From contig JAGQNH010000085.1 of the NCBI GenBank assembly GCA_020428185.1, positions 1 to 11,518 on the forward strand: DNA of 11,518 nt. Direction: 5' to 3'. Numbering within the stretch: the stretch's first letter is position 1; each line of letters begins with the position of its first letter. The notes under the pieces were generated by a model, which made no database searches, was not told the DNA's origin, and was given only the letters and a program-made list of their open reading frames with translations. The position numbers and the translations under genes are program-made. Source of the stretch: Candidatus Saccharimonadota bacterium (GTDB lineage Bacteria > Patescibacteriota > Saccharimonadia > Saccharimonadales > Saccharimonadaceae). This document shows, piece by piece, positions 2,552 to 11,518 of the stretch.

Positions 2552-3571
2552 CTATTCTTTTGAGTTGAGGTCTGCGAGGCGCCATGCGAGTTGGCCTATC
2601 CTGCTGCGTGCGGCTCCTGTCTTAGGGTCGCCGTTTCGTAGCCCAAGCGTATCTGCACGTTTGCCCGTATTGACGAATAGATCTTGCAGATTTTTGCGGC
2701 CTGTTTCGGACTTCCACCAGACATCATTGGCGACTGACTTTGGGATGCCCATGTCGGCTTGAGCCTGCTTGCTTGGCTTTAGGATTGCATTTGCAGCAAA
2801 GCGCAAGACAAGTGGCAATGACGCTGCGAATAGCTTTTTTTGAATTGGTGTGAGTTTGTCGATATGCTGCTTTTGGAATCTATCGGCAAATCCGATATGT
2901 CGCGCTTCTTCGGCCACATGTACTTTCATGACTTTTTCGAGCATTGGATGAATATCGAGGCCTTTTCTGCCCATATCTATGAGGGTTCGCTGTGTATGAT
3001 CGATTGGCTCTTCTCCGGCAAGTACCACTGCCCAAAATCCGACAGGCATCTTGCGCGCGATATAGCCGACAAGTGGGCTGAAATTGCGAAACCAGTTTGG
3101 TGCTCCCTTTGGTTTTGAGCCGATTCGATTTGCCATCTCATTGAACATGAGAATGTGGCGCTGTTCTTCTTCGGCTTCGTGGGTGGAATATCGCTTTTCT
3201 TCGCTGCTACTTGGAAGTGTTTGATTGCGGAGTGCGATACCGGCAATAAGAGCTTCTTCGAATTCTGAACCGACCTTGGCTACTTGTGCATAGCGATACA
3301 TGCCGATTTCGATTTGTTTTTCGCGTGGCAATTCTTGATACCATTCGCTAGCACCAAGGTCGAAGTTTTTTGGCAATATCCAGCGTTCGTCGTCAGGTGT
3401 GACGGCGTATTCAGGGTTATCCCAGTCGATAAAATTAACTGTTTTTACAGGAAATGGATTGTTGTAGACTTCTGCTGATTTTTTTGACCAGCGATGTACT
3501 CTTTCGTCGTACTCTTCTTTGCTAATCCGCGTGCCGTTGTCTGAGTTGTGGTTGTTTGAATGATTTTCCAT
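2552..3571 (-). CDS. AurF-family diiron oxygenase
   Basis: This is a 339-aa member of the p-aminobenzoate N-oxygenase (AurF) family, ferritin-like four-helix proteins that use a carboxylate-bridged diiron centre and O2 to oxidise a substrate. The visible ligand pattern is Glu105/106 in GSEFEE, E136-x2-H139 in HEAEEEQRH, Glu187/188 in LAGEE, and H218-x3-E222-x2-H225 in VHVAEEARH. The last triplet has the same spacing as His223/Glu227/His230 of AurF, and the site looks complete. The start at 3571 is preferred over 3625 because AAGGAG lies 10 nt upstream and the extra 18 residues look non-coding. The substrate cannot be read from sequence; arylamine N-oxidation is known for AurF itself, while many actinobacterial relatives are uncharacterised. 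It follows two unknown genes on the same strand but has its own promoter candidate. Confidence 0.85.
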   Translation of the reverse strand: MENHSNNHNSDNGTRISKEEYDERVHRWSKKSAEVYNNPFPVKTVNFIDWDNPEYAVTPDDERWILPKNFDLGASEWYQELPREKQIEIGMYRYAQVAKVGSEFEEALIAGIALRNQTLPSSSEEKRYSTHEAEEEQRHILMFNEMANRIGSKPKGAPNWFRNFSPLVGYIARKMPVGFWAVVLAGEEPIDHTQRTLIDMGRKGLDIHPMLEKVMKVHVAEEARHIGFADRFQKQHIDKLTPIQKKLFAASLPLVLRFAANAILKPSKQAQADMGIPKSVANDVWWKSETGRKNLQDLFVNTGKRADTLGLRNGDPKTGAARSRIGQLAWRLADLNSKE

Positions 3572-3581
3572 AGCGTCAACA

Positions 3582-3587
3582 CTCCTT
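3582..3587 (-). promoter_or_regulatory. Shine-Dalgarno (AAGGAG) fixing the AurF-like start
   Basis: AAGGAG on the minus strand lies 10 nt before the ATG at 3571. It selects this start over the longer open frame beginning at 3625. Confidence 0.6.
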
Positions 3588-3596
3588 GTTATCTGT

Positions 3597-3625
3597 ATCT
3601 TATGCCTCGTGTGTAAATAATGCAA
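3597..3625 (-). promoter_or_regulatory. Candidate promoter of the AurF-like gene
   Basis: TTGCAT (3620-3625) and TAAGAT (3597-3602) are separated by 17 nt on the minus strand, each matching 4 of 6 consensus positions. It lies between the end of the 211-aa gene and the Shine-Dalgarno of the AurF-like gene, so this gene may be transcribed independently. Confidence 0.35.
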
Positions 3626-5051: not shown

Positions 5052-6119
5052 ATGAAACACATACGACATCGCGCCGATGACATGGTCGCAGTTGAGCATG
5101 CTATCGATAGCTTCTTCGAGCGTTCTATCGTACATGCAGCGGACATAGATTCATCGTATGAGAGATTGTGGCGTACGTTGCACGAACTAATTCGTTCGGG
5201 CGGTAAACGCCTTCGTCCAAGAATGACGCTACTTGCATATGATGCGTTTGGTGGCAAGGATAGCATGTCAATACTTCCGGTTGCCGTTGCGCAAGAGTTG
5301 CTGCACTTTAGCTTATTGATTCATGACGATATTATTGACAGAGATTATCTGCGATACGGCACATCAAATATCGCTGGTTCGTACAAAGCGGTTTATAGAG
5401 AGCATACTGCGTCAGATGATGATATGACGCATTATGCTCATAGTGCTGCTATGCTGGGGGGTGATTTGATGTTGTCCGCAGCGCATCGGATGGTAGCATC
5501 GAGTCAATTGAGTGATTCAGATAAGATTATTGCCCAGGACTTTTTGGCTCATAGTATTTTTGAGGTAGCTGGCGGAGAGCTGCTAGATACAGAGCTGAGC
5601 TTTATGCCATATCGTGAGGGTGATGCGCTAAAAGTCGCTCGGTACAAGACTGTAGGATATTCATTCGTAAATCCTCTTCTTGCTGGCGCCACGCTGGCTG
5701 GCATAAACGAAAATCAAGCTCGCGCTCTGCGTGATTATGCAATAGCATTGGGTGTCGCGTTTCAGTTGGTTGATGATTTGCTTGGTGTGTTCGGCGATGA
5801 ATCATCGACTGGAAAATCAACATCAAGTGATATACGTGAAGGCAAGATGACATATATTGTCGAGCGAGCTATTAAGGAGATGGATACTGATCAAAGGAAG
5901 GTATTTGATACGTGGTTTGGCAATCATACAGCTAGTGACGACGGGGTGGCCGCAGTGCAGTCGCTGCTCGAAGTAACTGGTGCAAAGCAAGCAACGGTGG
6001 ATCTAGTAGCAGAATATGTCTCTGCTGCGCACGAGGCAATCGACAGGATGGAGCTTGATGCTGTTGCCGCGCATGAGTTTGTGAAGCTTGTAAAAAAAGT
6101 CACGGAGCGAACAAAATAA
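5052..6119 (+). CDS. crtE: Geranylgeranyl diphosphate synthase (polyprenyl synthase family)
   Basis: The enzyme condenses isopentenyl diphosphate with allylic diphosphates to make C20 GGPP, the carotenoid precursor. The 355-aa protein shows GGKRLRP (residues 50-56), the first Asp-rich motif HDDIID (91-96) with Arg101 downstream, Lys199-Thr200, and the second motif QLVDDLLGVFGD (238-249) followed by TGK and DIREGK. The DDLLGVFGD form and the length resemble actinobacterial IdsA/CrtE proteins. Residues 4 and 5 before the first Asp motif are Leu and Ser, not aromatic, which fits a product longer than farnesyl diphosphate. It is the first gene of the operon and its stop overlaps the crtB start by 1 nt (TAATG). 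Family certain; GGPP as product follows from motif and context. No upstream isoprenoid genes are in this window. Confidence 0.92.
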   Translation: MKHIRHRADDMVAVEHAIDSFFERSIVHAADIDSSYERLWRTLHELIRSGGKRLRPRMTLLAYDAFGGKDSMSILPVAVAQELLHFSLLIHDDIIDRDYLRYGTSNIAGSYKAVYREHTASDDDMTHYAHSAAMLGGDLMLSAAHRMVASSQLSDSDKIIAQDFLAHSIFEVAGGELLDTELSFMPYREGDALKVARYKTVGYSFVNPLLAGATLAGINENQARALRDYAIALGVAFQLVDDLLGVFGDESSTGKSTSSDIREGKMTYIVERAIKEMDTDQRKVFDTWFGNHTASDDGVAAVQSLLEVTGAKQATVDLVAEYVSAAHEAIDRMELDAVAAHEFVKLVKKVTERTK

Positions 6120-6950
6120 TGGAACTCTACGACCAAGTTGCGTATGACAATAGCAAGCATTTGACGCTTAGCTATTCGACTTCATTTGGACTAAGCAGTC
6201 GGTTATTTCCAAAGCAGATGCAGCGTCATATTTATGCGATATATGGACTTGTGCGTATAGCCGATGAGATTGTACGATACGTACAAAGGTGCAGATGCTG
6301 CGACACTACTCGATGATTTGGAGACGACTACATATAGTTCGATACAGTCGGGATATAGTACGAATCCAATCGTACATGCGTTTGCACGGACGGCGGCTAC
6401 CTATGGTATCGATAAGACGTTGATTGCGCCATTTTTTGCGAGCATGCGTATGGATTTGCAGCCACAAACGTATAGTCCTGACAACTATCAAAAATATATT
6501 CATGGGTCTGCAGAAGTCGTCGGACTCATGTGTTTGAAAGTGTTTCTTGATGGCGACGATAAGCGATATTCAGAGCTTCGCGAAGGTGCTGCGGCGCTCG
6601 GATCGTCATATCAAAAGGTGAATTTTTTGCGCGATATGGCAGCGGATTATGAGGAGCTTGGGCGACTGTATTTTCCGGGTGTGAAGTATGATGCTTTTGA
6701 CGAGGCGGCTAAACAAGAAATTATTGATGATATTACACATGATTTTCAAAAAGCGCTCCCTGCCTTGTGCGAGCTTCCGGTATCGAGCCGACGCGCAACT
6801 ATGATGAGCTATGTGTACTATTCGGAGTTATTGAAAAAACTCGAAGCAACGCCGGCATCGGTAATTAAGACGACGCGCATCCGCTTGCCTTCTCGCCGCA
6901 AACTAGCATTACTACTGCGTACATTGCTACGAGAAGGAGGAAAGCGATGA
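6119..6950 (+). pseudogene. crtB: Phytoene synthase CrtB, broken by a one-base insertion
   Basis: Phytoene synthase joins two GGPP head to head into phytoene. Two overlapping frames carry the two parts. The frame from 6119 encodes YSTSF (residues 19-23), the RHIYAIYGLVRIADEIV stretch and then off-frame residues up to a stop at 6314-6316. The frame from 6276 continues DTYKGADAA through the second Asp motif NFLRDMAADYEELGRLYFP to TGA at 6948-6950. Removing the C at 6275 restores a continuous 276-aa protein of normal length, with DEIVD at 49-53 and D172-x3-D176. The insertion falls exactly before the last Asp of the first substrate-Mg motif. The remaining ~225 codons show no further damage, so it is either very recent or a sequence error. 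The crtB start overlaps the crtE stop, and GGAG lies 11 nt upstream. Confidence 0.88.
6934..6940 (+). promoter_or_regulatory. Strong Shine-Dalgarno of crtI inside crtB
   Basis: AAGGAGG ends 6 nt before the crtI ATG at 6947. It is the best ribosome site in the operon and could allow crtI to be translated even when ribosomes terminate early in the broken crtB. Confidence 0.65.
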
Positions 6951-8470
6951 CACGAGTTGTCATAATTGGTGCTGGTATTGGCGGATTGGCGACTGCAAAT
7001 ATGCTTGCAAAGGCTGGGTATGATGTGGCAATCTACGAAAAAAACGATCAGCCGGGTGGCCACGCTGGCATGATGGAGATCAAAGGATTTCGTTTTGATA
7101 CAGGACCGTCATGGTATTTGATGCCAGAAGTCTTTGAACATTATTTTGAGCTGTTCGGCAAGGACGTCAACAAAGAACTTGATTTGGTACGACTTTCGCC
7201 TGCATACAAAGTGTTTTTTGAAAATGAATCACCCGTGATTGTGACGAGCGATGAAAAACGCGATGCGGAAACGTTTGAAAAAATCGAGCCAGGATCTGGC
7301 GAGAAGCTTTTGGAATATGTTGCTCGCGGTGATGATATTTATCAGCTTGCCCTGAAGCACTTTTTGTATACGAATTTTTCTTCGGTGCGTGATTTTGCGA
7401 AGTTTGATGTTGTAAAGCGCAGCCACATGATGACGAAATTGGCGTTTACGTCGATCGACAAATATGTCGCAAAGTACGTGAGTGAGCGACGCTTGCGACA
7501 AATCTTGGAATATCCAATGGTGTTTTTGGGATCGTCGCCATTTGCTGCTCCGGCAATTTATAGTCTCATGAGTGCGCTTGATTTTCGCGAGGGCGTGTAC
7601 TATCCGAAACGAGGCCTATATACGATTATTGAAAGTTTGACGAAATTAGGACGAGAACTTGGTGTCGAATATCACTACGCAAGTCCGGCGGCGCGTATCA
7701 CGACTGTAAATGGACGAGCGACAGGAATTGACTTGGCTGATGGAACGCACTGTGATGCGGATATTGTGATATCGAATGCTGATCTGCATTTTACTGAAAC
7801 ACGTTTGCTCGACAAGTCTGATCGCTCCTACCCTGCTTCGTACTGGAATAAGCGCGAAGCTGGTCCGAGCGCGTTGTTGATGTATCTTGGAGTGCGTGGA
7901 GATTTGCCAGAGCTTGAACATCATAATTTGTTTTTTGTTGATGATTGGAAGCAGAATTTCGAAAGTATATTCAAGACCAAAACACTTCCCGACCCTGCCT
8001 CTGTGTATGTATGTAAGCCAAGCGCAAGTGACGATAGCGTCGCACCAAAAGGGTCTGAGAATGTATTTGTGCTAGTGCCGTTGCCCGCTGGAGTTTCGCT
8101 TGCTGGCAAGGTACTTCGTGATGCGGCAGAAAAATACCTGCAACTTATTGAACAAAAAATGAATATCAAAGATCTCCGGAAGCGTATTGTCGTGAAGGAG
8201 CTTTTTGGGCCGAATGATTTTGAAGAAAAATACAATGCGTGGCAAGGTACTGCACTCGGGCCTTCGCATTTGCTTAGCCAAAGTGCGATGTTCAGGACGC
8301 CAAATGTAAGCAAGAAGGTCAAAGGACTGTACTACGTAGGTGGCTCTACGACGCCTGGCATTGGGTTGCCGATGTGTCTGATTGGAGCGGAGTTGATATA
8401 TAAGCGATTGGCTGGAGATAGGCTCGGAGGCCCGGTGAAGAAAATACATAAACTGCCGGAGCAACAATAA
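6947..8470 (+). CDS. crtI: Phytoene desaturase (lycopene-forming type)
   Basis: CrtI is a membrane-associated FAD enzyme that dehydrogenates phytoene, usually in four steps to lycopene. The 507-aa protein has the N-terminal dinucleotide fold IIGAGIGGL (residues 6-14) with acidic Glu31 at the end of the second strand, then QPGGHAG and the RFDTGPSWYLMP stretch. The C-terminal FAD-binding region is YVGGSTTPGIGLPMCL (463-478), followed by IGAELIYKRL. Length and motifs are normal for bacterial CrtI. The ATG overlaps the crtB stop by 4 nt (ATGA), and its own stop overlaps the crtYe start by 1 nt. A cyclase and an elongase follow directly and both need lycopene-type ends, which supports four-step desaturation. 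Step number cannot be read from sequence. Confidence 0.93.
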   Translation: MTRVVIIGAGIGGLATANMLAKAGYDVAIYEKNDQPGGHAGMMEIKGFRFDTGPSWYLMPEVFEHYFELFGKDVNKELDLVRLSPAYKVFFENESPVIVTSDEKRDAETFEKIEPGSGEKLLEYVARGDDIYQLALKHFLYTNFSSVRDFAKFDVVKRSHMMTKLAFTSIDKYVAKYVSERRLRQILEYPMVFLGSSPFAAPAIYSLMSALDFREGVYYPKRGLYTIIESLTKLGRELGVEYHYASPAARITTVNGRATGIDLADGTHCDADIVISNADLHFTETRLLDKSDRSYPASYWNKREAGPSALLMYLGVRGDLPELEHHNLFFVDDWKQNFESIFKTKTLPDPASVYVCKPSASDDSVAPKGSENVFVLVPLPAGVSLAGKVLRDAAEKYLQLIEQKMNIKDLRKRIVVKELFGPNDFEEKYNAWQGTALGPSHLLSQSAMFRTPNVSKKVKGLYYVGGSTTPGIGLPMCLIGAELIYKRLAGDRLGGPVKKIHKLPEQQ

Positions 8471-8784
8471 TGAGCTGGTTGTATTTGCTGGGAATCTTGG
8501 TATCGATTGCTGGGATGGCGACGCTTGATTGGCGCTACAAGCTGGCATATTTTGCTGATCGAAAACGCACGATATTGACAGTTGTGATTTGTACGGGCGT
8601 GTTTGTGCTGTGGGATTTGATGGCAATACGACAAGGTGTGTTCATATACGGCAACAGCCAATACTCACTGCCATTTACAATTGTGCCGGAGTTTCCGGTG
8701 GAAGAAATATTTTTTCTGACATTGCTTTGTTATTGCACATTGGTGATATATAACGCAGGGGTCAAGCGATGGCGACGTACTTAA
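8470..8784 (+). CDS. crtYe: Lycopene cyclase subunit, first half (CrtYe/CrtYc type)
   Basis: This 104-aa integral membrane protein has about three hydrophobic segments (roughly residues 2-18, 34-52 and 79-95). The conserved acidic motif PVEE (76-79) sits at the start of the last segment, and LDWRYKLAYF lies after the first. It belongs to the lycopene cyclase domain family (CarR/CrtYcd), in which two small subunits act as a heterodimer to form the rings of carotenoids. CrtYc/CrtYd make beta-rings on lycopene; CrtYe/CrtYf make epsilon-rings on elongated C50 chains. I use the C50 names because a lycopene elongase follows, but ring type cannot be decided from sequence. The frame overlaps crtYf by 16 nt; GGAG lies 8 nt before the start, inside crtI. 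Confidence 0.85.
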   Translation: MSWLYLLGILVSIAGMATLDWRYKLAYFADRKRTILTVVICTGVFVLWDLMAIRQGVFIYGNSQYSLPFTIVPEFPVEEIFFLTLLCYCTLVIYNAGVKRWRRT

Positions 8785-9062
8785 TATTGAATTGTTTGGT
8801 ACTGGGTGCTGTCTGGCTGGCACTGTGGCAGAAGCCGCGATGGCCATCAAAGCTTTGGCTGATTTCGTTTGCCGCGATACTTGTCCTTACATTACTATTT
8901 GATAATTTTTTGATATGGCTCGGTATATATAGCTATGAATCTTCGAAAATTTTGGGTGTGTATATCGGGAAGGCACCTATAGAAGATTTCATGTATGCAG
9001 TTATGGCGGTGATTATCGTGCCATTTATTTGGAACAAATTGGGAGAGCGTCACGATGGATAG
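8769..9062 (+). CDS. crtYf: Lycopene cyclase subunit, second half (CrtYf/CrtYd type)
   Basis: This 97-aa membrane protein has about three hydrophobic segments (roughly residues 3-20, 28-51 and 72-88). The family motif appears as PIED (70-73), with FDNFLIWLGIYSY (44-56) before it. It is the partner of the preceding subunit: together they correspond to the two repeats of the fused fungal and archaeal cyclases. The fourth motif position is Asp rather than the Glu seen in the first half, and the key Glu is kept. The start overlaps the end of crtYe by 16 nt, with AGGGG 7 nt upstream, which should keep the two subunits in balanced amounts. The stop overlaps crtEb by 8 nt. Confidence 0.83.
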   Translation: MATYLILNCLVLGAVWLALWQKPRWPSKLWLISFAAILVLTLLFDNFLIWLGIYSYESSKILGVYIGKAPIEDFMYAVMAVIIVPFIWNKLGERHDG

Positions 9063-9909
9063 CCTACGAAAATTGTTCGTAATTTCACGCCCTGTATCGT
9101 GGCCGAATACTGCATATCCATTTGCTGCTGCGTATTTGATGACGGGCGGGACGCTTGGCGTGACATTTTGGGTGGCGACGATATTTTTTCTGATTCCATA
9201 CAATTTGTTGATGTATGGCGTCAATGACGTGTTTGATTACGAGTCTGATATGCGCAATCCTCGCAAGGGTGGTATCGAGGGTGCTCGTGAACAAAAAGCC
9301 TTTCATCCGACTATATTGTGGGCGTCAATTGTATCGACGTTGCCGTTTGTCGTATGGCTGCTACTGACTGGCTCAGCGGTGGCGAATGCCGTACTGGCAG
9401 TGCTGATGTTTTTTGTAGTTGCCTACTCGATAGCTGGACTGCGATTCAAGGAAGTCCCCATAGTAGATTCGGTGACGAGTAGTATACATTTTGTCGGTCC
9501 GATGGTGTATGCGATGGTACTGACTGGATTTGCGTCGGAGTATGTTCCCTATATTGTCGCATTCTTTTTGTGGGGTGTTGCGAGTCATGCGCTTGGTGCG
9601 GTGCAAGATATCATACCGGACCGTAAGGGCGGCTTGGCTTCGGTTGCAACTGTGTTCGGTGCGCGCGTGACAACGCGGGTGGTCTTTGTGTTGTATTGTG
9701 CGAGTGGTGTCATCATGATGATGCAGGGGGTCTTGCCTGCCCTAGTGGGTATAGCGGCATTGATGAATGTCATTAATGTCGTGCCATATCTTGGCGTCAG
9801 TGACAAAACATCTGGTCGTGTCAATAAGGCATGGCGTCGATTTATCTGTCTCAATCTGATGACCGGATTTGTGATTACTATGGTATTGTTGACAACTACG
9901 CTCGTATAA
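9055..9909 (+). CDS. crtEb: UbiA-family lycopene elongase (C50 carotenoid synthesis)
   Basis: This 284-aa protein is a polytopic UbiA prenyltransferase with about eight hydrophobic segments. Its two Asp-rich motifs are NDVFDYESD (residues 57-65), followed by NPRKGG, and QDIIPD (184-189), followed by RKGG. The NDVFDYESDxRNPRKGG form and the length match CrtEb/LyeJ-type lycopene elongases, which add C5 units from DMAPP to both ends of lycopene, giving C50 chains. As the last gene of the operon after a split cyclase, it points to a cyclic C50 pigment of the decaprenoxanthin or sarcinaxanthin kind. Related archaeal enzymes also hydrate the chain, and other UbiA members prenylate quinones or chlorophyll; neither fits the context as well. 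GGGAG lies 9 nt before the start, inside crtYf. Confidence 0.85.
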   Translation: MDSLRKLFVISRPVSWPNTAYPFAAAYLMTGGTLGVTFWVATIFFLIPYNLLMYGVNDVFDYESDMRNPRKGGIEGAREQKAFHPTILWASIVSTLPFVVWLLLTGSAVANAVLAVLMFFVVAYSIAGLRFKEVPIVDSVTSSIHFVGPMVYAMVLTGFASEYVPYIVAFFLWGVASHALGAVQDIIPDRKGGLASVATVFGARVTTRVVFVLYCASGVIMMMQGVLPALVGIAALMNVINVVPYLGVSDKTSGRVNKAWRRFICLNLMTGFVITMVLLTTTLV

Positions 9910-10555: not shown

Positions 10556-11518
10556 GTGTTTTTTACTCGAATACGTGCAGCCGCCCTAGGGCTAATGCCG
10601 GCGATCGCGATTTGTTTCGGTGTGGTTATGGCCACACTCAAAACTACTGTTGCCGTCGTATCGACAGCTGTAGTAGTCATGATACCTGGTACCAAGGCAG
10701 TGGATCCTCAAACGAATGAGAAGCCTGAGGTGCCCACCGAAGTACTGCAGCAGGAGCTGCAGGGATGGGTTTATCAACAAGCAACGGAAGGTTGGATTAC
10801 AAATGATTATCCACGTTCGATGGGCGAACTTACTGGTTCTGGGGACCCATTATTTGAGGTATCGACTGCAATCGGCAAGGAAAATCTCGACCGCCTCATC
10901 GTCGCCAATGTCGTTTCAGGAGTGGTCGGTTTCGGCTATTCGCAAGGAGCAACTGTAGCGTCGCTATGGCTGAATGATCATGCCAATGGCAATGATCCGA
11001 ATGCTCCGTCTGCCGATGATGTCTCGTTTGTCCTGATTGGTAGCCCCAATAGGCCAAATGGTGGGTTGTTGGCTCGTGCGACTGGAGTGTATATTCCAGT
11101 CCTTGGAGTGCCGTTTAGTGGCGCAACTCCAGAGAGTCAGTATGCTGTGACAGATGTTGTGCGTCAGTATGATATCTTCGCAGATTTCCCCGCTGATCCG
11201 CTCAATGTTTTTTCGCTATTGAATGTGTTTGCTATCGCTGGCGCAATTCATGGTGATTACCTTGATGTGGACATCAATGATCCCGCCAATGTAGTAGAGG
11301 TGCACGGCAATACGACGTACATTATGCAGCCTGCAAAAACTCTGCCCTTGGCAGATGCCTTGCGCAACATTGCTGCGCTTTTCGGTCGGACCGAAACGCC
11401 AGTTATTGATGCGTTTGAGCCGGCATTGAAGTATCTTGTTGAGCTCGGTTACGACCGGACAAGTCAAGCGACCACAGTGCCGTTTCAGCCCGGATCTTCG
11501 ATTGTTCGTTTCTTGAAC
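10556..11518 (+). CDS. Exported or anchored PE-PPE domain alpha/beta hydrolase, 3'-truncated
   Basis: The frame opens at GTG and continues for 321 codons to the window edge. Residues 1-40 hold Arg residues and then a long hydrophobic stretch, a signal peptide or anchor. A MIPGT strand end (42-46) begins the hydrolase fold, GYSQG (127-131) is the nucleophile elbow with Ser129, and YDIFADFPADPLN (205-217), IHGDY (231-235), TTYIMQPAKTLPL (253-265) and LGYDR (297-301) follow in the order seen in PE-PPE domains. Candidate acid and base are Asp206 or Asp210 and His232. Characterised mycobacterial members are esterases acting on short to medium acyl chains. No N-terminal PE or PPE module is present, unlike most mycobacterial examples. 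It probably acts outside the cytoplasm on lipids, perhaps those of an actinobacterial partner (inference). Confidence 0.88.
   Translation, partial: MFFTRIRAAALGLMPAIAICFGVVMATLKTTVAVVSTAVVVMIPGTKAVDPQTNEKPEVPTEVLQQELQGWVYQQATEGWITNDYPRSMGELTGSGDPLFEVSTAIGKENLDRLIVANVVSGVVGFGYSQGATVASLWLNDHANGNDPNAPSADDVSFVLIGSPNRPNGGLLARATGVYIPVLGVPFSGATPESQYAVTDVVRQYDIFADFPADPLNVFSLLNVFAIAGAIHGDYLDVDINDPANVVEVHGNTTYIMQPAKTLPLADALRNIAALFGRTETPVIDAFEPALKYLVELGYDRTSQATTVPFQPGSSIVRFLN

What the first reader, a model, noticed from the sequence alone, without database searches (positions are those of the whole stretch)
5052..9909. Complete C50-type carotenoid operon in a probable Saccharibacteria genome
Six overlapping genes give every step from prenyl diphosphates to a cyclic C50 carotenoid, in the same order as the Corynebacterium cluster. 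Cyclic C50 carotenoids are known mainly from Actinobacteria and linear ones from haloarchaea. Saccharibacteria are reduced episymbionts of Actinobacteria and, as far as I know, generally lack de novo isoprenoid synthesis, so the operon may depend on host IPP/DMAPP and may have been gained from a host lineage. Taxonomic assignment is inferred from compactness, GC and gene affinities.
Basis: partly seen in the sequence, partly recalled or inferred. Interest (0 to 1): 0.75.

Follow-up and report, generated by a model that had tools for sequence, protein, structure and literature searches.

The report
Pigment operon in host-dependent Saccharibacteria
A tiny bacterium of a host-dependent lineage carries a six-gene set for an unusual 50-carbon pigment, although key genes for making the pigment's building blocks were not found in it or its relatives, and the set does not look borrowed from the actinobacteria compared here.

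Summary
The six genes are real and at the stated coordinates, but crtB (6119-6950) is split by a frame change near 6264-6274 in this assembly. In 27 Saccharimonadales relatives that part of crtB is one frame (one more is cut by a contig end), so this is a recent lesion or a sequence error. The genome is a Saccharibacterium: same genus as UBA2112, same family as complete genome CP011211. CrtEb matches occur in 36 of 392 genomes searched in the order. All six genes in this order are in 26 of 31 window-type loci (window included); the other five stop at contig ends. Among the 36, IspH, HMG-CoA reductase and type-2 Idi were found in none, UppS in 32, which suggests an external C5 source. None of the 36 matched type-1 rhodopsin. 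Gain from an actinobacterial host is not supported: in a five-gene tree rooted on haloarchaea the 20 sampled Actinobacteria are one clade (100/100) inside Saccharimonadia diversity, and nesting of the window's type in Actinobacteria is rejected (AU p 0.0004), although CrtEb alone does not reject it. One relative lost the operon by internal deletion. Linear C50 genes in Patescibacteria were already in print (Lake Baikal, 2023); I saw no report of the cyclic operon here in the library searched.

The parts
5052..6119 (+). crtE: geranylgeranyl (polyprenyl) diphosphate synthase, 355 aa
   Evidence: NCBIfam polyprenyl synthase models up to 195 bits, all under their cut-offs; both Asp-rich patterns; 52-58% identical in L033 and L086-L090
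6119..6950 (+). crtB: phytoene synthase; reading frame changes near 6264-6274, so split in this assembly
   Evidence: PF00494 in two pieces; sequence; single ORF in 27 of 28 Saccharimonadales relatives, the other cut by a contig end
6947..8470 (+). crtI: phytoene desaturase, 507 aa
   Evidence: TIGR02734 542 bits, cut-off 238; NF058655 (CrtI/CrtD type) 547 bits, under its cut-off of 640; 73% identical in L033 and L035
8470..8784 (+). crtYe: C50 carotenoid cyclase subunit, 104 aa
   Evidence: TIGR03462 61 bits, cut-off 39.4; PxEE pattern in 32 of 32 Saccharimonadales and 48 of 49 actinobacterial copies
8769..9062 (+). crtYf: C50 carotenoid cyclase subunit, 97 aa
   Evidence: TIGR03462 50.7 bits, cut-off 39.4; PxE[DE] pattern in 32 of 32 and 49 of 49
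9055..9909 (+). crtEb: lycopene elongase (UbiA family), 284 aa
   Evidence: PRK13105 395 bits, cut-off 217; NDxxDxxxD-like pattern in 32 of 32 and 49 of 49; 53 named relatives

Best explanation
This is a cyclic C50 carotenoid operon of a Saccharibacterium, resident in part of the order Saccharimonadales and lost at least once there. Shown by sequence: the genes, their order, conserved motifs, distribution, and the absence of the C5-synthesis markers searched. Inferred: C5 diphosphates (IPP and DMAPP, or FPP/GGPP) come from the host; CrtE makes GGPP, CrtB phytoene, CrtI lycopene; CrtEb adds a C5 unit at each end (flavuxanthin); CrtYe/CrtYf close the two rings. The product would sit in the membrane as a stabiliser and antioxidant. 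The ring type cannot be read from the sequence. In this genome the crtB frame change means the pathway is newly broken or the assembly has an error. The sampled actinobacterial operons branch inside Saccharimonadia diversity, so the window's operon does not look taken from any sampled actinobacterial lineage.
For: Genes and motifs. The operon lies in single-contig genomes G146, G154 and G199, which argues against contamination. Six-gene order in 26 of 31 window-type loci, the other five cut by contig ends. C5 supply in the 36 genomes with a CrtEb match: HMGR 0, IspH 0, type-2 Idi 0, each with controls ringing, against UppS 32. An idi gene lies in the fetched stretch of 41 of 49 actinobacterial loci but 1 of 30 other window-type loci, some of either kind cut short; none found in G000. 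Phylogeny: five-gene tree, 20 Actinobacteria 100/100, Actinobacteria plus window type 100/100, L114, L115 and L118 outside; nested-in-Actinobacteria rejected, p 0.00035; all cyclic-type Saccharimonadia in the tree as one clade rejected, p 0.0015; CrtEb alone p 0.0195 for the same question. Loss: G114 keeps flanks of G109's operon at 90-91% with crtE's start joined to crtEb's end.
Against: No chemistry exists for any of these proteins here. The crtB frame change, if real, stops the pathway in this strain. G000 is 75.5% complete and lacks even RpoB and UppS, so absences rest on its relatives. The 36 include a remnant (G114) and distant or bacterioruberin-like types. Seven of 36 have type-1 Idi over the cut-off, so C5 needs differ. 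CrtEb alone does not reject nesting beside two actinobacterial MAGs, L064 and L068 (p 0.413); an early CrtEb tree favoured it (95/94); CrtI alone is borderline (p 0.061); CrtI does not reject the window type as one clade (p 0.259). Actinobacteria were found mainly through short words shared with the window's CrtEb, so deep lineages may be missing.
Confidence: 0.75

Rival explanations
1. The operon was gained by the window's lineage from an actinobacterial host.
For: First CrtEb tree put window-type Saccharimonadia beside two actinobacterial MAGs (L064, L068) within the actinobacterial rows, 95/94; with wider sampling the CrtEb test does not reject that grouping, p 0.413.
Against: Sampled actinobacterial CrtI are one clade, 100/100 (30 rows; 25 rows); nesting has p 0.061 for CrtI alone and p 0.00035 for five genes; divergent Saccharimonadia copies lie outside both groups.
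Confidence: 0.07
2. Both groups received the operon from a third, unsampled lineage, so neither gave it to the other.
For: The flanks of the operon are not conserved among Saccharimonadales, and crt and RpoB trees share only 6 of 23 splits, all shallow, so the unit moves.
Confidence: 0.25
3. In this strain the operon is a decaying remnant and makes no phytoene. (Not exclusive of the best explanation.)
For: crtB frame change at the first Asp-rich motif; no second crtB found in the assembly; operon lost by deletion in relative G114.
Against: Both pieces are otherwise open, and the longer one is as conserved as its neighbours (68-72% against 73% for crtI to L033 and L035); a 146-contig assembly may carry errors.
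Confidence: 0.35
4. The contig is a low-GC actinomycete's, misbinned.
For: Flanking genes include AurF-like and PE-PPE-domain proteins, which I recall as common in Actinobacteria.
Against: The operon's nearest relatives are Saccharibacteria of the same genus and family; a homologue (31% identity) of the flanking gene at 1988-2521 stands next to crtE in same-genus G134.
Confidence: 0.02

Closest known systems
Corynebacterium glutamicum crtE-cg0722-crtBIYeYfEb (decaprenoxanthin operon; PMC3598387, abstract and outline seen)
   Same: Same six enzymes in the same order
   Different: No cg0722 between crtE and crtB; C5-synthesis markers not found in the window's genome or its relatives; crtB split in this assembly
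Operons of Microbacteriaceae and other Actinobacteria (L036-L082, L084, L085)
   Same: Same gene set; CrtEb mostly 47-54% identical (a partial match in L082 reads 61%)
   Different: 41 of 49 have idi in the fetched stretch; the 20 used form their own clade
Bacterioruberin genes lyeJ, crtD, cruF in Lake Baikal Patescibacteria (PMC9948471, passages seen)
   Same: C50 carotenoid genes in the same phylum, including a Ca. Saccharibacteria genome
   Different: Linear C50 type with CruF, reported as not forming one cluster; the window has CrtYe/CrtYf. L116-L119 look like this other type
Saccharibacteria proton-pumping rhodopsins (PMC9296517, parts 1 and 2 of 3 read)
   Same: Isoprenoid-dependent trait in Saccharibacteria thought to be fed by Actinobacteria
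   Different: No overlap seen: none of the 36 genomes with CrtEb is among the 15 of 392 matching PF01036

Membership tests
Cyclic C50 carotenoid operon | Lycopene elongase CrtEb | tested here: met
   PRK13105 395 bits over a 217 cut-off; NDxxDxxxD-like pattern
Cyclic C50 carotenoid operon | Heterodimeric cyclase CrtYe/CrtYf | tested here: met
   Both over the TIGR03462 cut-off; adjacent and overlapping
Cyclic C50 carotenoid operon | CrtE, CrtB, CrtI upstream in one run | tested here: met
   Order crtE-B-I-Ye-Yf-Eb
Cyclic C50 carotenoid operon | Intact phytoene synthase | tested here: not met
   crtB is in two frames in this assembly; single ORF in 27 of 28 relatives. The window is therefore filed as a copy of the operon with one broken or misread gene
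Cyclic C50 carotenoid operon | Co-transcription | not testable with these tools
   Only overlap of reading frames is seen
Cyclic C50 carotenoid operon | C50 product | not testable with these tools
   No chemistry
Bacterioruberin (linear C50) gene set | CruF hydratase near the elongase | tested here: not met
   Nine other ORFs of the window do not match PF04240, and eight of them match no NCBIfam CruF model (the ninth, AurF-like, matches none)
Ca. Saccharibacteria | Kinship of the window's assembly to named genomes | tested here: met
   Genus g1 with UBA2112, family f1 with CP011211
Ca. Saccharibacteria | 16S rRNA gene | tested here: inconclusive
   None found in the 75.5% complete assembly

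The most novel reading that the evidence does not exclude
The cyclic C50 carotenoid operon of Actinobacteria was derived from the Saccharibacteria side: an episymbiont lineage that cannot make its own C5 units gave its hosts, or the hosts' ancestors, their characteristic yellow pigment operon.
Probability: 0.35. Interest if true: 0.8.

Novelty: new member of a known kind. Interest (0 to 1): 0.58.

Why it matters
Cells with genomes of about 0.6 to 1.4 Mb and none of the C5-synthesis markers searched keep a pathway that spends ten C5 units per molecule. That is a measurable handle on what a Saccharibacterium takes from its host. The trees also question the usual assumption that such operons flow from host to symbiont. 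Linear C50 genes in Patescibacteria were already reported, so the trait is not wholly new.

Tried and rejected
Rhodopsin antenna or retinal route: PF01036 matches 15 of 392 genomes (9 over cut-off), none with CrtEb. With so few positives no overlap is expected often (Fisher p 1.0), so this shows only no positive link. None of the 14 control genomes rang in that search. Retinal-making Blh and heliorhodopsin were not searched.

Idi as a partner gene: 7 of the 36 over the TIGR02150 cut-off; 29 of 392 over the PRK03759 cut-off, the same seven among them. 7 of 36 versus 22 of 356 gives p 0.011, mixing two models and not corrected for kinship.

Motif patterns: the CrtI C-terminal pattern matched 0 rows in every group (ill-made) and the N-terminal one 17 of 31 and 29 of 49; neither was used. 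The second CrtEb pattern matched 29 of 32 and 48 of 49, the second CrtB pattern 28 of 29 and 47 of 47.

Conserved neighbours: apart from the crt genes no family occurs in more than 7 of 37 loci. Phages: no CrtEb match. Plasmids: 6 CrtEb records, five haloarchaeal and one Arthrobacter.

Rows dropped before trees, by name in the scripts (near-duplicate actinobacteria and partial sequences): 75 of 92 CrtEb rows used; 85 rows, including 16 distant proteins and 3 actinobacterial ones, and 3 haloarchaeal; 65 and 58 plus 4 outgroups of 90 CrtI rows; 20 of 31 window-type and 20 of 49 actinobacterial loci. L163 (Arthrobacter plasmid) was fetched but put in no tree. The 16 distant proteins carry no verified taxonomy.
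Full report
OBSERVATION. The window holds six + strand genes from 5052 to 9909. NCBIfam places crtI, crtYe, crtYf and crtEb over family cut-offs; crtE and the longer crtB piece match their families below the cut-offs. Neighbouring genes overlap by 1, 4, 1, 16 and 8 bases. The one fault is crtB: PF00494 is met in two pieces in different frames, and the ORF list (80 aa or more) shows only 6264-6950. Of 28 Saccharimonadales relatives with a crtB hit, 27 have an ORF of 272-296 aa there and one is cut by a contig end. The change falls at the first Asp-rich motif, which I name from recall. Identity to relatives is as high in crtB as in crtI, so the change is recent or an error.

WHOSE GENOME. The assembly G000 has 700,561 bases in 146 contigs, 75.5% complete, 2.3% contamination. 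Its genus-mate G224 has the contig of Candidatus Saccharibacteria bacterium UBA2112 (same length and place), and its family-mate G199 is CP011211, Candidatus Saccharibacteria bacterium GW2011_GWC2_44_17, titled complete genome. No 16S gene was found. Among the 120 best CrtEb proteins the few with an organism name say Saccharibacteria, Saccharimonadales, Patescibacteria, Nomurabacteria (P0003) or Chloroflexi (P0071). I did not test the last two labels; another record labelled Chloroflexi, L034, falls among Saccharibacteria in the trees.

DISTRIBUTION. CrtEb matches in 36 of 392 genomes of the order, drawn from a larger group, and in 29 of 315 of the better ones. One of the 36, G114, is a remnant. 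In 379 genomes drawn from the phylum 25 match at E 0.001; outside the class none exceeds 35% identity over most of the protein. Of 31 window-type loci, the window included, 26 have all six genes in the same order; the other five stop at contig ends. Divergent copies are arranged otherwise: G035 has all six genes in another order, G079 has crtYf, crtEb and a turned crtI, and no cyclase gene was found in the stretches fetched from G032, G073, G092 and G009. These four share a protein that in G009 passes PF04240 (carotenoid biosynthesis) and matches CruF models below their cut-offs.

LOSS AND INHERITANCE. In G114 flanks of its genus-mate G109's operon are kept at 90-91% nucleotide identity, and the start of crtE runs into the end of crtEb, with 14 bases shared at the join. 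That is an internal deletion. RpoB and crt trees of 26 genomes share 6 of 23 splits, against a mean of 0.2 and a maximum of 3 in 1000 shuffles. All six are shallow; deeper branches differ. So the operon is inherited among close relatives and has probably moved between deeper lineages, as its unconserved flanks also suggest.

C5 SUPPLY. In the 36 genomes with a CrtEb match: HMG-CoA reductase 0, IspH 0, type-2 Idi 0, UppS 32, type-1 Idi 7 over cut-off with weaker matches in 13 more. Control genomes rang in each of these five searches (5, 10, 14, 14 and 5 of 14; for the two Idi models only 7 and 2 of 14 over cut-off). This agrees with a published survey in which C5 synthesis among freshwater CPR is described for Gracilibacteria and other classes seem limited to C10-C20 steps (PMC9166423, passages). 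An idi gene lies in the fetched stretch of 41 of 49 actinobacterial loci but 1 of 30 other window-type loci; stretches differ in length and some are cut. G000 has no match to either type-1 Idi model. The simplest reading is that both C5 units, or longer prenyl diphosphates, come from the host. Import itself is not shown; the other MEP steps, mevalonate kinases and prenol salvage were not searched.

ORIGIN. A first CrtEb tree without haloarchaea seemed to nest the window's type among Actinobacteria. CrtI disagreed. With haloarchaeal outgroups and 16 distant proteins added, CrtEb gave Actinobacteria as one group (94/70) beside the window's type (86/75), with other Saccharimonadia outside. Holding the 50 non-outgroup, non-actinobacterial rows together was rejected at p 0.0195, while joining the window's type to L064 and L068 was not (p 0.413). 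For CrtI, nesting via L064 has p 0.061, and window-type unity is not rejected (p 0.259). Five genes together: Actinobacteria one clade 100/100, joined to the window's type 100/100; L114, L115 and L118 outside, L115's exact place weak at 88/48; nesting within Actinobacteria p 0.00035; window type plus L114 and L115 as one clade p 0.0015. The groups tested were named after earlier trees were seen, many rows differ in letter make-up, and actinobacteria were found mainly through short words shared with the window, so I hold the boldest reading at 0.35.

FUNCTION. Conserved motifs are kept in CrtE, CrtYe, CrtYf and CrtEb in nearly all Saccharimonadales and actinobacterial copies checked. By analogy with C. 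glutamicum, where deletions assign crtI, crtEb and crtYeYf (PMC3598387, abstract), the product should be a cyclic C50 carotenoid. Ring type and any sugar are unknown. A role in membrane stability or against oxidation is inference. A rhodopsin role finds no support.

PRINT. Searches and 76 of the held library were seen as listings, two of them long (25 of 71 papers, 25 of 2,096). Passages were opened in PMC9948471, PMC12805836, PMC9875498, PMC9166423, PMC12422013, PMC6146748, PMC12650772, PMC7308576 and PMC6290093. Only PMC9948471 reports C50 genes in this phylum, the bacterioruberin type. I saw no report of the cyclic operon in Saccharibacteria. Most subscription journals are not in that library.

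Noticed in passing
window 10556-11518 (+): A protein with a PE-PPE domain (PF08237, 172 bits; a weak match to acyltransferase PE), a domain I recall from mycobacterial proteins, runs off the contig end in a Saccharibacterium.
   Followed up: no
window 2552-3625 (-): An AurF-like diiron oxygenase (PF11583, 227 bits) near the operon.
   Followed up: no
L138:352-2406 (-) (G685, same class, another order): One 684-aa open frame joins a UbiA/CrtEb part to a family-2 glycosyltransferase part (PF01040, PF00535), which would fit a glycosylated C50 carotenoid.
   Followed up: partly
L222 (G114:C4:24000-42000): Deletion scar joining the start of crtE to the end of crtEb with 14 shared bases.
   Followed up: partly
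L116-L119 (G073, G032, G092, G009): A second, bacterioruberin-like C50 gene set with a PF04240 (CruF-like) protein; in G032 and G092 an idi gene lies about 2 to 4 kb from crtEb.
   Followed up: partly
G134, G224, G199, G206, G269, G035: Divergent UppS (E 1e-34 to 1e-40 against 1e-60 or better in the other matches); G000 has none in its assembly.
   Followed up: no
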